Shown one piece after another: positions 10,451 to 53,706 of a stretch of 64,000 bases of DNA. Positions within the stretch are counted from its first letter, which is position 1, and the number at the start of each line of letters is the position of its first letter. Source of the DNA: Rossellomorea sp. y25 (GTDB lineage Bacteria > Bacillota > Bacilli > Bacillales > Bacillaceae_B). Both the position numbers and the translations under genes were made by a program. Location of the stretch: the NCBI RefSeq assembly GCF_038049935.1, contig NZ_CP145886.1, forward strand, positions 191,001-255,000, written 5' to 3'. The notes under the pieces were generated by a model. The model saw only the letters and a program-made list of their open reading frames with translations. It ran no database searches and was not told the DNA's origin.

Positions 10451-10531
10451 TCACAATTTGGCACAATAAACTGCAAAAGTGGCACAATTTTGGATGAGAG
10501 TGGCACAAGTTTCCTCGAAAGTGGCACAACA
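10451..10531 (+). repeat. Array A: GTGGCACAA core repeated every 21 bp
   Basis: GGCACAA begins at 10460, 10481, 10502 and 10523, exactly 21 bp apart each time. The full core is (G)TGGCACAA. Spacers of 12-13 nt are purine-rich and end in AAAG or GAG. The array is led by TCACAATT, as in array B. No gene follows it. The 10532-10738 stretch holds only AT-rich sequence with GGGGGTTTTT about 50 bp past the last core. On the minus strand the array would encode a 7-residue periodic peptide, which I take to be a by-product of the period. Confidence 0.8.
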
Positions 10532-12376: not shown

Positions 12377-12626
12377 GAAACAAAAGCGGAGGCGGCTCGC
12401 TCAGGCCCGACAAGCATAAGACGAGAACGCCGGAAAGGCGCCTTTTGCCTTTATGGTGTTATTGGCTTATGACCTCGAGGGACTAGCCGCCGTAGCTGGC
12501 CGAAACAAAAGCGGAGGCGGTTCGCTCAGGCCCGACAAGCATAAGACGAGAACGCCGGAAAGGCGCCTTTTGCCTTTATGGCGTTATTGGCTTATGACCT
12601 CGAGGGGCTAGCCGCCGTAGCTGGAC
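12377..12626. repeat. Two tandem 125-bp copies of a dispersed Bacillus intergenic repeat
   Basis: Copies at 12377-12501 and 12502-12626 differ at only about four positions, and each begins GAAACAAAAGCGGAGGCGG. Within a copy the ends are partly complementary (GCGGAGGCGG against CCGCCGTAGC) and the middle holds nested complementary segments (GGCGCCTTTTGCC, CAAGCATAAG against CTTATG), so each could fold as a long imperfect hairpin. Similar GCGGAGGCG...GACAAGCATAAGACGAG elements are scattered in Bacillus genomes. The GC content is clearly above the surroundings. Confidence 0.85.
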
Positions 12627-12744
12627 GAAACATTCAAAGCTCTAAAAATGCATGACTTTATCCATAATAAGGTATAAACTCATAGACAATTGAACGTTCA
12701 AGGTCTACTATAAGGAAGACAAAAAACATCTGGGGGATACGGTA

Positions 12745-37015: not shown

Positions 37016-37071
37016 TTGGTGAATGTGCGGATTGCGGTGAGGGTAAGGTGTGGGGTGTGGTATGACGCGTG

Positions 37072-37173
37072 TTCACAATTTGGCACAACAAACGCTAAAA
37101 GTGGCACAAGTTTGTATGAAAGTGGCACAATAAACCGCAAAAGCGGCACAAGTTGCTCGAAAGTGGCACAACA
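37072..37173 (+). repeat. Array B: GTGGCACAA core repeated every 20-21 bp, upstream of NERD gene 1
   Basis: GGCACAA begins at 37082, 37103, 37124, 37145 and 37165, with steps of 21, 21, 21 and 20 bp. It is led by TTCACAATTTGGCACAA, identical to the lead of array A at 10450. Spacers alternate between two kinds, one like TAAACNGCAAAAG and one like GTTTNNTCGAAAG, also as in array A. It lies between the terminator of the upstream operon and the NERD gene. AAAGGGTTTTT follows about 55 bp after the last core. Confidence 0.82.
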
Positions 37174-37275
37174 CACGAGCTTATCCTCTCAAAATACATA
37201 TTATATTTGGAAAAATAAAGGGTTTTTCGATTCTATGTCGAATAGATAGATTAAGAAATAGGAGGAGTTGATAAA

Positions 37276-37380
37276 TTGATCGCTAAAAACAGAGAAATCC
37301 CGCGGAGAATCTTAATGAATGAAGTATTATTAGAAAGATGACGGCCCACCCATTCTCTCTGGGAGATCATTAAAACAGAT
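37276..37380 (+). pseudogene. Interrupted 5' end of NERD gene 1 (in-frame TGA at 37339)
   Basis: A strong GGAGGAG at 37261-37267 is correctly placed for a TTG at 37276. From there the frame runs LIAKNREIPRRILMNEV, then LLER and a TGA stop at 37339-37341, and continues in the same frame (RPTHSLWEIIKTD) into the open frame at 37381. The paralogue at 47078 has an equivalent TTG start (LICKELKVPI) and LLWR-LPLNHQKIPIVDKD before the same KRKAGY motif. The TGA therefore looks like a point nonsense mutation in an otherwise intact leader segment. Confidence 0.65.
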
Positions 37381-38295
37381 TTGGCAAAGCGAAAGGCCGG
37401 TTATCGGGGAGAGTTGCAATTAGATTACCATCTGAAGTTTATATCTCAAGATAAAAATATGATGATCTTGCATGATCTACGCTTAGAAATAGATGACCGT
37501 TACTTCCAAATCGACAGCCTCATCCTGACTCCATATGTCGTGATACTCCTGGAAGTTAAACACATAGCTGGTATATACACCTTAGACTCAAGGTTCGATC
37601 AAGCTATCCGAAAGTTTGAAGATAAAGAAGAAGCTTTCAGCCATCCTGTCACCCAGGTAGAACGCCAGAAAAAGCAGTTGCTCCGTTGGTTGACAAAAAT
37701 GAAAATCCCCTCAATCCCTATCACAACTCTGGTCGTCATGACAAATCGCTCGACTGTCATAAATACATTCTCTCCTCACGAAAAGTATACTAATGTAATC
37801 AGGGTGGAAAATGTAGAGGAAAGAATCCTATCCCTGCTCACAGCATATAGAAAAGAACATCCTTCCTTTAAACAAGTTAGAAAAGCGTCCGCCTTATTAG
37901 TAAAAAAGCATGAACCTCTCATAGCATTCCCCGAAGAAATCTATGGTATCTCCCGAGAGGAAATCATTACAGGAGTACAATGTCCAGAATGTCGGCACTT
38001 GCCCATGTTAAGAAAATATGGTCATTGGCAGTGTCTGAAATGCGGGGGGAAATCAAAGAACGCACATAAATCAGCCCTATTGGACTATTCTTTGTTGCTG
38101 GGAGACGAAATTACGAATAAACAGCTAAGAAAATTTCTCCACTTGGAATCCAGAAAGACGGCTCTCAAAATACTCCAGTCCATGAATCTCCCCTCAACCG
38201 GTACTACAAACAACATAACCTACTACATCACCCACCATACCGACGAACAAACCTCTCATCAATCCAATTCTTCATACGCCAAGCCCATCCACTGA
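37381..38295 (+). CDS. NERD-domain nuclease-related protein 1, probably disrupted at its start
   Basis: The 304-residue frame holds a NERD domain with the restriction-like residues: GYRGELQLDY (Glu), FQIDSLILTP (Asp) and LEVKHIAGI (Glu, Lys). It also has a C-terminal zinc ribbon (CPECRHLPMLRKYGHWQCLKC, two CxxC pairs) and a final winged-helix-like segment. The true start is probably TTG 37276, from which an in-frame TGA separates this part. No ribosome binding site lies before the TTG at 37381, so expression is doubtful. Its 3' end runs 68 bp into the convergent oxidoreductase gene and its last 25 or so residues have no match in the paralogue at 47078. It lies directly after array B. Confidence 0.7.
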   Translation: MAKRKAGYRGELQLDYHLKFISQDKNMMILHDLRLEIDDRYFQIDSLILTPYVVILLEVKHIAGIYTLDSRFDQAIRKFEDKEEAFSHPVTQVERQKKQLLRWLTKMKIPSIPITTLVVMTNRSTVINTFSPHEKYTNVIRVENVEERILSLLTAYRKEHPSFKQVRKASALLVKKHEPLIAFPEEIYGISREEIITGVQCPECRHLPMLRKYGHWQCLKCGGKSKNAHKSALLDYSLLLGDEITNKQLRKFLHLESRKTALKILQSMNLPSTGTTNNITYYITHHTDEQTSHQSNSSYAKPIH

Positions 38296-46786: not shown

Positions 46787-46852
46787 TTGTTGGTTAGATT
46801 AGGTATCGGAATGGGGGCAAGGTTCGTTGTTGGTTTCCAATCTTTACTAAAA

Positions 46853-46986
46853 GACGCGATTATTGTGTGGAACGACGCAATTAAGGTGAAAAAAGACGCA
46901 ATAAATTAAAAAAAGACGCAATTAAGGTGAGAAAAGACGCAATTATTCAGATATCGACGCAATTAAACCCCAATACGACGCAATTA
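46853..46986 (+). repeat. Array C: GACGCAATTA core repeated every 20-21 bp, upstream of NERD gene 2
   Basis: GACGC begins at 46853, 46874, 46895, 46915, 46936, 46956 and 46977, with steps of 21, 21, 20, 21, 20 and 21. Most units read GACGCAATTA, and the spacers between are A/G-rich, often ending AAAA. AAGGTGAAAAA-type spacers recur in alternate units. It lies between the cshA terminator and the NERD gene. GGGTTTTTT follows about 45 bp after the last unit, as after array B. Confidence 0.82.
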
Positions 46987-47077
46987 GTGAAAAACTGTTG
47001 ATTTTTTAATTGAAAAGAAGGGTTTTTTAAGCCTGTGGCGAACTAGAGTAAGCAGAACCTTAAAGGAGAGTGATCAA

Positions 47078-48049
47078 TTGATCTGTAAAGAACTCAAAGT
47101 CCCTATCAATATTGAAAATTGCCAAGCATTATTATGGCGCCTGCCTCTCAATCATCAAAAGATTCCCATCGTAGATAAGGATTTAAAGAAAAGAAAAGCA
47201 GGTTACAACGGTGAAGCAACCGTCTACTACCACCTCAGCTTCTTGAAAGACAAGAAATATAAAATCTTTTATGATATAAGGCTTCCTCTATTCTCAAACT
47301 ACTTCCAAATAGATTTCCTCATCCTCACTCCATTCTACATTTTAATTATCGAAGTGAAGAACATCTCAGGAATAGTCACCATTGATCCATTCATAAGACA
47401 GCTTACCCGTACTTATAAAGGATTATCAGAAGGATTCTCTGACCCGATCTCCCAGGTTCAAAGACAAAAATTATTACTGCAAAAATGGTTCAGTGTCCAC
47501 AAGCTGAAGCACCCTCCCATCGAACACCTCGTTGTTTTCAGCAACCCATCAACTATCTTAAATTTCACCAAAACCCCACCAGCTGACTCACCTTACAGAA
47601 AAATCATTCATGCCCAAAATATAATAGACAATATCAAAGATTTAAATGAGATATACGTAAAAGAAGCCATGACTGATAAAGAAATGAACAAAATGAAGAA
47701 AACCATTTTGAAAAAACATGAAGAATCTGAGCTAGACTTTATGGAGACATATTCTCTTACCCGAAGCGATATTGTGACTGGGGTCCGATGTGAAAACTGC
47801 CATCACATACCAATGATTAGAGTAAGTGGAGCATGGTCTTGCGTTAAATGTGGTAGTTCATCTAGATATGCTCATCTAGAAGCGGTTCGGGATTATTTCT
47901 TACTACTAAGTGATCGCATAACCAATCGCGAACTGAGGAGTTTCTTGCATCTGAACTCACGAAACACCGCCTATAAAATATTGAAAACCCTTCAATTAGA
48001 AACAAAAGGAGGGACAAAGTCTGTCACCTATTCAAAACCAACGAGATAA
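47078..48049 (+). CDS. NERD-domain nuclease-related protein 2
   Basis: The 323-residue protein, starting at TTG 47078 behind AAAGGAG, has a NERD domain with intact restriction-like residues: GYNGEATVYYHL (Glu), FQIDFLILTP (Asp) and IEVKNISGI (Glu, Lys). Then come a zinc ribbon (CENCHHIPMI and WSCVKCG) and a C-terminal helical segment (ITNRELRSFLHLNSRNTAYKILK) that may bind nucleic acid. It is an intact paralogue of the disrupted gene at 37276-38295. It directly follows array C, which suggests a link between the two. It lies between cshA and uvsE, an insertion into the conserved cshA-ydbS block. Function unknown. Confidence 0.8.
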   Translation: MICKELKVPINIENCQALLWRLPLNHQKIPIVDKDLKKRKAGYNGEATVYYHLSFLKDKKYKIFYDIRLPLFSNYFQIDFLILTPFYILIIEVKNISGIVTIDPFIRQLTRTYKGLSEGFSDPISQVQRQKLLLQKWFSVHKLKHPPIEHLVVFSNPSTILNFTKTPPADSPYRKIIHAQNIIDNIKDLNEIYVKEAMTDKEMNKMKKTILKKHEESELDFMETYSLTRSDIVTGVRCENCHHIPMIRVSGAWSCVKCGSSSRYAHLEAVRDYFLLLSDRITNRELRSFLHLNSRNTAYKILKTLQLETKGGTKSVTYSKPTR

Positions 48050-53589: not shown

Positions 53590-53706
53590 GTCGATAATAA
53601 AAGCAGCGAAGTTGATAATAAATGTGGAAAGTCGATAATAAAAGCAGCGAAGTCGATAATAAATTCAGGAAAGTCGATAATATAAAGCTTAAAGCCAATA
53701 ATAAAA
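53590..53706 (+). repeat. Array D: GTCGATAATAAA core repeated every 20-21 bp
   Basis: Cores begin at 53590, 53611, 53631, 53652, 53673 and 53694, with steps of 21, 20, 21, 21 and 21. Units read G(T/C)(C/T)(G/A)ATAATAAA. Spacers end in GAA or AAA, and AGCAGCGAA appears in units 1 and 3. It lies after the ydcC terminator. No NERD gene follows. A lone TCGATAATA at 53872 may be a remnant. The rest of the gap to alr (53707-54024) has no gene, only an imperfect ACAAGAC-GG-AGAAAAC pair about 30 bp apart. Confidence 0.82.

What the first reader, a model, noticed from the sequence alone, without database searches (positions are those of the whole stretch)
46853..48049. Array C, a 21-bp phased motif array directly upstream of a NERD-domain gene
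Seven copies of GACGC(AATTA) start at 46853, 46874, 46895, 46915, 46936, 46956 and 46977. The mean step is about 20.7 bp, two helical turns, with variable A/G-rich spacers. A NERD-domain protein with a zinc ribbon begins 92 bp later. Occasional steps of 20 bp break the reading frame, so the period is better explained by DNA helical phasing (proteins bound on one face) than by coding. The array plus NERD gene (and uvsE) sit as an insertion in the otherwise conserved cshA-ydbS order. The inference is that array and NERD protein form one functional unit, for example a DNA-binding platform with its own nuclease-related protein.
Basis: partly seen in the sequence, partly recalled or inferred. Interest (0 to 1): 0.82.

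Follow-up and report, generated by a model that had tools for sequence, protein, structure and literature searches.

The report
Nuclease genes with matching DNA arrays
In many Bacillus relatives, most genes of one nuclease-like family sit behind a row of short DNA words spaced two helix turns apart, the same words recur in rows elsewhere in the chromosome, and word and DNA-binding end of the protein appear to change together, which points to an undescribed protein-DNA partnership.

Summary
The array is real: seven GACGCRATWA copies at the stated positions, steps 20-21 bp. It belongs to a pattern. Of 77 related NERD loci with enough upstream DNA, 64 carry at least 4 copies of some motif at 19-23 bp steps, against 19 of 529 other genes with intergenic upstream DNA. 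The five long NERD genes of this genome have arrays of 3-7 copies, each with its own motif. The protein looks like a PD-(D/E)XK nuclease with zinc ribbon and winged helix. A sigma-H-like promoter precedes the gene in 49 of 82 loci. The same motifs form dispersed intergenic arrays. In a sister genome the ortholog keeps 88% identity over residues 1-200 but 54% over 201-323, and its motif is GACGCATAA. Array and NERD are very probably one specificity-matched system. It works like REP/RAYT pairs but fails their defining features. What it does for the cell is unproven: binding, cutting and sigma-H control are inferred. Five searches of an open-access library listed no description of NERD genes with arrays.

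The parts
46835..46852 (+). Conserved element TTCCAATCTTTACTAAAA directly 5' of the array
   Evidence: TCCAAT invariant in 11 aligned loci; function unknown
46853..46986 (+). Array of 7 copies of GACGCRATWA, steps 21,21,20,21,20,21
   Evidence: cores nearly invariant and spacers variable in the 11-locus alignment
47017..47045 (+). Sigma-H-like promoter, -35 GAAGGGTTT and -10 GGCGAACTA
   Evidence: loosened pattern AGG[AGT]-N-GAA[TC] at spacing 21; consensus RNAGGAWWW / RNNGAATWW as quoted in PMC8510167; one base off in each box
47062..47069 (+). Ribosome binding site AAAGGAGA
   Evidence: sequence
47078..48049 (+). NERD gene, 323 aa, TTG start
47198..47542 (+). NERD nuclease-like domain (residues 41-155) with E46, Q77, D79, E92, K94
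   Evidence: Pfam; the five residues invariant in 80 of 80 relatives; fold
47780..47863 (+). Zinc ribbon (residues 235-262, C238 C241 C255 C258)
   Evidence: C238 80, C241 79, C255 80, C258 78 of 80
47864..48046 (+). C-terminal winged helix (residues 263-323)
37081..37171 (+). Second array, 5 copies of TGGCACAA, upstream of a second NERD gene
37276..38295 (+). Second NERD gene; the reading frame has an in-frame TGA at 37339-37341 (codon 22) and is open behind it
10459..10529 (+). Orphan array of GGCACAA (same motif as the second NERD), between convergent genes
53590..53706 (+). Orphan array of GTCGATAATAAA; NERD genes with this motif are in related genomes, none of the five long NERDs here has it

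Best explanation
The NERD protein is a sequence-specific DNA-binding nuclease, and the array is a row of its own binding sites on one face of the helix. The zinc ribbon and winged helix read the motif; the N-terminal PD-(D/E)XK-like domain is probably catalytically competent. The paralogues have different motifs, so several pairs coexist in one cell. The gene is probably switched on by sigma-H at the onset of stationary phase or sporulation, and the array just upstream of its promoter probably lets the protein control its own gene. The same motif forms further arrays between genes over the chromosome. These tend to match the protein and, in one case, are gone where it is gone, so protein and arrays behave as a partnership like RAYT and REP elements, with nuclease-stimulated tandem duplication of 20/21- or 41-bp units as the likely way arrays grow. 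Shown by sequence: pairing, different motifs, covariation, constraint on dispersed cores. Inferred: binding, cutting, sigma-H control, autoregulation, mode of growth.
For: Upstream arrays in 64 of 77 loci against 19 of 529 other genes and in 27 of 32 new genus NERDs (750 bp searched there, 450). The 5 long NERDs of this genome have arrays with 5 different motifs; the short NERD L001 has none. In G007 the ortholog's residues 201-323 fall to 54% identity (82-89% in L007-L009) while residues 1-200 stay at 88%, and the motif before it is GACGCATAA. A second locus (L005/G007, flank 92% over 553 bp) shows another gene plus motif difference in place. Motif similarity tracks the zinc ribbon and HTH best after controlling for the rest of the protein (0.283, 0.272). 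G024/G025 arrays away from the NERD carry the changed motif of their NERD. GGCACAA arrays are gone or reduced to a damaged copy at 5 of 5 comparable orphan sites in G007, which lacks that NERD at its place. TCGATAAT dispersed cores differ at 8 of 239 sites against 57 of 289 in spacers. Active-site residues invariant in 80 of 80.
Against: No binding or cutting data exist. TCGATAAT arrays persist in G000 without their NERD. In G007, two of five comparable GACGCAAT orphan sites still hold 3 exact GACGCAAT copies although its NERD has a GACGCATAA array (others 1, 0, 0), and G000's own L155, L156 and L158 arrays mix GACGCATAA with GACGCAAT, so a rewrite of dispersed arrays is at best partial there. 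Eight of 82 loci lack even 3 upstream copies, though L039, L054 and L056 have arrays downstream. In the wider class 9 of 28 new loci have 4 or more copies and 4 of 28 the promoter pattern. The promoter pattern is absent in 33 of 82. Covariation is moderate, and the NERD domain itself gives 0.133. Movement of an array to a new site was not seen.
Confidence: 0.6

Rival explanations
1. Chromosome organisation: NERD proteins bind dispersed arrays to fold, anchor or partition the chromosome at the onset of sporulation, in the manner of RacA, Noc or MatP sites (analogy recalled).
For: Sigma-H-like promoter; 11-22 arrays for each of four motifs spread over the chromosome; dispersed cores constrained; arrays not enriched at promoters; GGCACAA arrays run with replication in 19 of 22 and GACGCAAT in 11 of 13 (my count and the GC skew).
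Against: Orientation is not general (TCGATAAT 6 of 11, CGCTGATA 4 of 13). Gain, loss and breakage of genes, changes of motif and several unlike motifs per genome are odd for a core chromosome function. An invariant nuclease site is not needed for it.
Confidence: 0.25
2. Plain transcription regulator: arrays are operators; NERD proteins control their own genes and a regulon of array-bearing neighbours.
For: Arrays usually sit just upstream of the NERD promoter; the C-terminal winged helix resembles repressors such as AntR and CadC.
Against: Dispersed arrays are not promoter-biased: co-directional 39, convergent 7, divergent 4 of 50, against 85, 8, 20 of 113 baseline gaps (the differences are not significant). 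Distances from the last copy to the start codon range widely. It leaves the invariant nuclease site unexplained.
Confidence: 0.2
3. Defence or self/non-self nuclease: arrays on the chromosome hold or mark the nuclease, which attacks DNA lacking or carrying the motif.
For: Nuclease-like fold with intact site, changing specificity and many paralogues; NERD domains occur in defence proteins (weak PglW and MAD6 matches).
Against: A pattern scan of the viral contigs confirmed no relative (78 stretches matched a pattern, none encoded one); only distant hits in 2 of 72,556 plasmid and 1 of 50,697 phage records. Absence from mobile DNA is weak evidence, and I did not look systematically for partner genes.
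Confidence: 0.12
4. Unrelated neighbours: arrays are ordinary satellites and NERD genes happen to sit beside them.
For: Arrays also occur far from NERD genes.
Against: 64 of 77 against 19 of 529, motif-protein covariation and changes in step.
Confidence: 0.02

Closest known systems
REP elements and RAYT (REP-associated tyrosine transposases)
   Same: A DNA-cleaving protein family beside its own repeats; the same repeats dispersed between genes; abundance follows presence of the protein; gene and repeat change together at fixed positions (abstract and section 7 of PMC2817692, compared here).
   Different: PD-(D/E)XK-like nuclease with winged helix instead of a HuH/tyrosine enzyme; non-palindromic phased direct repeats, mostly on one side, instead of palindromes flanking the gene in inverted orientation; sigma-H-like promoter.
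Iterons and partition-site repeats of plasmids (recalled)
   Same: Short motifs repeated at about two helical turns, bound on one face.
   Different: Chromosomal, dispersed, in many unlike motifs, tied to a nuclease-like gene.
CRISPR arrays (recalled)
   Same: Repeats with variable spacers.
   Different: Repeat core 8-12 bp and period 20-21 bp; copy number changes by whole units. cas genes were not searched for.
NERD-domain proteins (PF08378), SmdA, PglW
   Same: NERD domain.
   Different: SmdA is a membrane protein of cell division that lacks several of the most conserved NERD residues (passages of PMC9040797); no arrays are mentioned in the passages I saw.

Membership tests
NERD domain (PF08378) | Match above Pfam's gathering score | tested here: met
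   80.9 bits against 22.1; 52 of 52 relatives match at E up to 0.01
PD-(D/E)XK nuclease superfamily | Core fold | tested here: inconclusive
PD-(D/E)XK nuclease superfamily | D and ExK catalytic residues | tested here: met
   E46, Q77, D79, E92, K94 invariant in 80 of 80; activity not tested
REP/RAYT | HuH/tyrosine (IS200/IS605-like) enzyme | tested here: not met
   Pfam gives NERD only for the query; no transposase model among the 12 families matched by any of 52 members
REP/RAYT | Palindromic repeats | tested here: not met
   All 200 shuffles fold at least as well as the array strand; one 9-nt inverted pair in this array, none in the second
REP/RAYT | Two repeats in inverted orientation flank the gene | tested here: not met
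   One-sided upstream array here; downstream arrays seen at some loci such as L039, L054, L056
REP/RAYT | Repeat type and protein change together | tested here: met
   partial in G007's dispersed GACGC arrays
CRISPR-Cas | Repeats of more than 20 bp with longer unique spacers (recalled) | tested here: not met
   Core 8-12 bp, period 20-21 bp
CRISPR-Cas | cas genes | not tested
   no search made
Sigma-H promoter | -35 AGGA-like and -10 GAAT-like boxes at canonical spacing, over the gene family | tested here: met
   Loosened pattern at spacing 21 or 22 in 49 of 82 loci, 1.25 and 1.5 expected; 22 of 32 new genus loci, 4 of 28 new class loci
Sigma-H promoter | Strict consensus RNAGGAWWW / RNNGAATWW at this gene | tested here: inconclusive
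   GAAGGGTTT and GGCGAACTA, one base off in each
Sigma-H regulon | Transcription depends on sigH | not testable with these tools
   no expression data
Known structured RNA | Match to an Rfam family | tested here: not met
   Only SurA at 12.1 bits against a gathering score of 100
Known anti-phage system | PADLOC family match | tested here: not met
   Weak only: PglW in 3 of 5 members, best E 0.00023; MTase_I in 1 at 0.024

The most novel reading that the evidence does not exclude
A new kind of chromosomal partnership: a family of mutually orthogonal, sigma-H-switched nucleases, each with its own word in the genome. Arrays are built and kept in step by the nuclease itself through targeted nicking and unit duplication, so that a change in the winged helix in time rewrites dispersed arrays: a self-sustaining array-nuclease system independent of mobile elements.
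Probability: 0.35. Interest if true: 0.93.

Novelty: categorically new. Interest (0 to 1): 0.85.

Why it matters
A widespread chromosomal protein family (profile matches, weak ones included, in 58 of 200 sampled class genomes and 40 of 95 genera) would gain a likely substrate: its own array. The pairing offers many natural protein-motif pairs, including a near-natural exchange of the C-terminal part, for learning how a zinc ribbon plus winged helix reads DNA, and a second, independent case beside REP/RAYT of a nuclease and genomic repeats living together. It also makes the role of NERD domains directly testable: PMC9040797 says their function in bacteria had not been studied (passages), while PMC12567373 says nuclease activity was shown, citing the 2004 family description (passages).

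Tried and rejected
Tried and rejected. Coding origin: 20- and 21-bp steps mix. Structured RNA or hairpin DNA: no Rfam family, strand folds worse than shuffles. Orphan arrays as relics of lost NERD loci: tblastn (E up to 0.01) of 83 NERD proteins against 54 orphan stretches plus W1 and W4 hit nothing; only W2, which holds a NERD, was hit. Replication polarity as a general rule: holds for two motifs, not for two others. Arrays as operators of neighbouring genes: not promoter-enriched. Mobile-element cargo: no relative confirmed in viral contigs, three distant hits in phages and plasmids; array DNA against phages, no match. A first context script with naive ORFs was replaced by one with codon scoring. 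A sequence search of solved structures gave nothing useful. NCBIfam gave only matches far under the cut-offs. Paper searches on NERD with repeats or arrays listed no description of it; searches served REP/RAYT and sigma-H. I read passages of PMC8510167, PMC9040797, PMC12802215 and PMC12567373 and the abstract and one section of PMC2817692; subscription journals are mostly not held. In the PDB fold lists I saw no single chain covering all domains; that is no evidence of a new fold.

Rows dropped and overlaps: L074 (upstream cut off) left out of the 78 loci; three short proteins left out (80 of 83 used). In one search, 60 loci were used; loci with under 4 copies, short proteins and L024, L040, L053, L065, L066, L072, L082, L084 were left out. 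Of the scan's 317 relatives only the best 80 (78 loci) were held. Of the 40 genus loci 8, and of the 30 class loci 2, repeat earlier loci; counts here use the other 32 and 28 (with repeats: 35 of 40 and 11 of 30 at 4 or more copies). In one search, 6 of 56 orphan arrays lacked a called gene on one side. In one search, 23 of 58 own-genome array stretches had a counterpart in the G007 pieces I fetched; 3 of these had no usable flank, and L135 lies in a repeat-rich stretch and was left out of the 5 of 5. The G007 pieces for TCGATAAT were chosen because G007 has arrays there, so its shared positions are no estimate. The match lists were capped. The core class requires a near-match in at least one species, which favours low divergence somewhat. 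The Mann-Whitney and Fisher tests take no account of kinship.

Full report
OBSERVATION. TRF reports the array with periods 21 and 41. A TTG-started ORF of 323 codons follows 91 bp after the last copy and matches the NERD domain.

NOT A SINGLE CASE. The genome (G000, 4.63 Mb) has six NERD ORFs. The five long ones, with a zinc ribbon and a C-terminal extension, each have an upstream array of 3 to 7 copies, and each array has a different motif: GACGCAATTA (the finding), TGGCACAA (window 37081, second NERD), CGGC.GGAT, TTTTGAAAATAAA, TTTCGCTGATAA. The sixth, a short NERD of another type (L001), has none.

ACROSS GENOMES. A scan with the five proteins found 317 relatives; the best 80 gave 78 loci, in records named Rossellomorea, Bacillus, Peribacillus, Fictibacillus, Metabacillus and other relatives. 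Of the 77 with at least 450 bp upstream, 64 have a chain of 4 or more similar 8-mers at 19-23 bp steps, 49 have 5 or more and 25 have 6 or more. Other spacing windows give 0-2 of 77 at 4 or more, except 39-43 bp (14 of 77), which is twice the period. Gaps are 20 (153) or 21 (133), with 19 and 22 seen four times each. Markov shuffles give 0 of 385. Upstream regions of 529 other genes in the same loci give 19 (Fisher p about 1e-55); three of these (L022, L039, L055) lie just downstream of the NERD gene. Forty further NERD genes of the genus include 8 repeats of earlier loci; of the other 32, 27 have 4 or more copies and 31 have 3 or more within 750 bp. In 28 new loci drawn across the class it was 9 and 13. 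Beyond the near relatives the link is therefore weaker, or the arrays lie elsewhere.

PROMOTER. Between array and start codon lies AGG[AGT] and GAA[TC] at a spacing of 21 (24 loci) or 22 (25 loci) among 82, with 1.25 and 1.5 expected and 0-2 seen at the other spacings from 14 to 30; the -35 is mostly 55-61 bp before the start. It is also in 22 of 32 new genus loci but only 4 of 28 new class loci. This is a loosened form of the sigma-H pattern RNAGGAWWW / RNNGAATWW, quoted in one passage of PMC8510167. Dependence on sigma-H is inferred.

DISPERSED ARRAYS. Exact pairs at the right spacing in G000: GGCACAA 45 pairs (about 22 arrays), GACGCAAT 61 (13), TCGATAAT 26 (11), CGCTGATA 41 (13); backwards controls 1, 0, 0, 0. 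In a systematic 400-kb sample, which overlaps the window for 2 of them, the 9 arrays found had motifs of NERD genes of this genome or, for TCGATAAT and CGCCGTTA, of related genomes. A motif of a Fictibacillus NERD, used as control, gave one pair in 36 genus genomes. Fifty-six orphan arrays were examined: with genes called on both sides for 50, 39 lie between co-directional genes, 7 between convergent and 4 between divergent ones, against 85, 8 and 20 of 113 baseline gaps. They are thus not promoter-enriched (no difference significant). No NERD relic was found beside them. Of 22 GGCACAA arrays, 16 begin with exactly TTCACAATTT and 3 more with a close form.

MOTIF AND PROTEIN CHANGE TOGETHER. 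(a) In the sister genome G007 the window's NERD ortholog is 88% identical over residues 1-200, as in L008 and L009, but 54% over 201-323 (82-89% in L007-L009), and its array reads GACGCATAA. L010, L012 and L013, at only 66-74% over residues 1-200, keep 82% in the helix-turn-helix and 79-89% in the wing, and keep GACGCAAT. (b) At another locus with 92% identical flank, G000 has a TTTTGAAAATAAA array and NERD, and G007 an AAAGTCGATAAT array and NERD, 64.5% identical in DNA. (c) Across 60 loci, motif similarity follows the zinc ribbon (0.283) and the HTH (0.272) best once the rest of the protein is controlled for; the NERD domain gives 0.133, and residues 1-40 and 263-282 about zero. (d) In 36 genus genomes the seven with most TCGATAAT pairs are G003 (64), G023 (49), G021 (35), G009 (28), G007 (27), G000 (26) and G005 (21). 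Five of them have a NERD at least 70% identical to the L080 protein; G000 has none, and G009 has another NERD whose own array reads TCGATAATAAA in a different flank. One-sided Mann-Whitney over all 36 gives p 0.012, uncorrected for kinship. The two genomes with the NERD but no such pairs, G024 and G025, have AAGTCGATAAAA before their NERD and AAAGTCGATAAA arrays at three and two other places; they share spacers and look closely related, so this may be one event. (e) Against a full rewrite: at five comparable GACGCAAT orphan sites G007 has 1, 0, 0, 3 and 3 exact copies, and G000's own arrays at L155, L156 and L158 mix GACGCATAA with GACGCAAT.

LOSS AND CONSTRAINT. G007 lacks the GGCACAA NERD at its place, and at 5 of 5 comparable orphan sites it lacks the array or keeps one damaged copy (L137); L135 was not comparable. 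TCGATAAT arrays, by contrast, persist in G000, which has no cognate NERD. In orthologous TCGATAAT arrays of G000 and G007 the cores differ at 8 of 239 sites, the spacers at 57 of 289 and the flanks at 360 of 1748. The orphan array at window 53590 occurs at the same place with 6 copies in G007, with one or two copies in five relatives, and is missing in five (L007, L009, L011, L012, L015). Copy numbers change by 20/21- or 41-bp units. NERD genes are often lost or broken: genus genomes hold 1 to 12 matches, several with internal stops or in pieces, array plus NERD at 37027-38209 is missing or a relic in L007, L008, L012 and L015, and the second NERD of the window has an in-frame stop.

HOW IT MOST LIKELY WORKS. 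The nuclease's C-terminal part reads the motif; the phased array gathers many molecules on one face of the DNA upstream of its promoter; dispersed arrays are further platforms. The change of protein and array in step, the absence of arrays where the protein is absent in one tested case and the several unlike pairs resemble RAYT and REP (abstract and one section of PMC2817692), but enzyme, repeat form and layout differ, so it is an analogue and not a member. A host function in the chromosome at the onset of sporulation is the strongest rival, and the two may both hold.

Noticed in passing
window 12377-12632; similar units in L135, L144, L153, L179 and L277: A 125-bp unit (AAAGCGGAGGCGGCTCG...CTTATGACCTCGAG) in two tandem copies; related units recur in tandem elsewhere in G000 and in G007, some in stretches that also hold GGCACAA arrays. 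No Rfam match above the gathering score.
   Followed up: partly
window 37276-38295: The second NERD gene has an in-frame TGA at codon 22; a NERD with the same motif in L021 is uninterrupted (339 aa).
   Followed up: partly
G000 whole chromosome: GGCACAA and GACGCAAT arrays mostly run with replication (19 of 22, 11 of 13), while CGCTGATA arrays mostly run against it (4 of 13 with); unexplained.
   Followed up: partly
window 46835-46852 and L007-L015, L020: A TTCCAATATTTG-like element directly before the array; TCCAAT is invariant in the 11 orthologous loci.
   Followed up: no
L170 (G000 1374200-1379200): One array holds TTGAAAAT and TCGATAAT copies in phase, as if caught between two motifs.
   Followed up: no
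L033, L046, L056: Very large or multiple arrays near NERD genes (17-21 copies upstream in L033; 21 or more downstream in L056), with unlike motifs within one 20-kb stretch.
   Followed up: no
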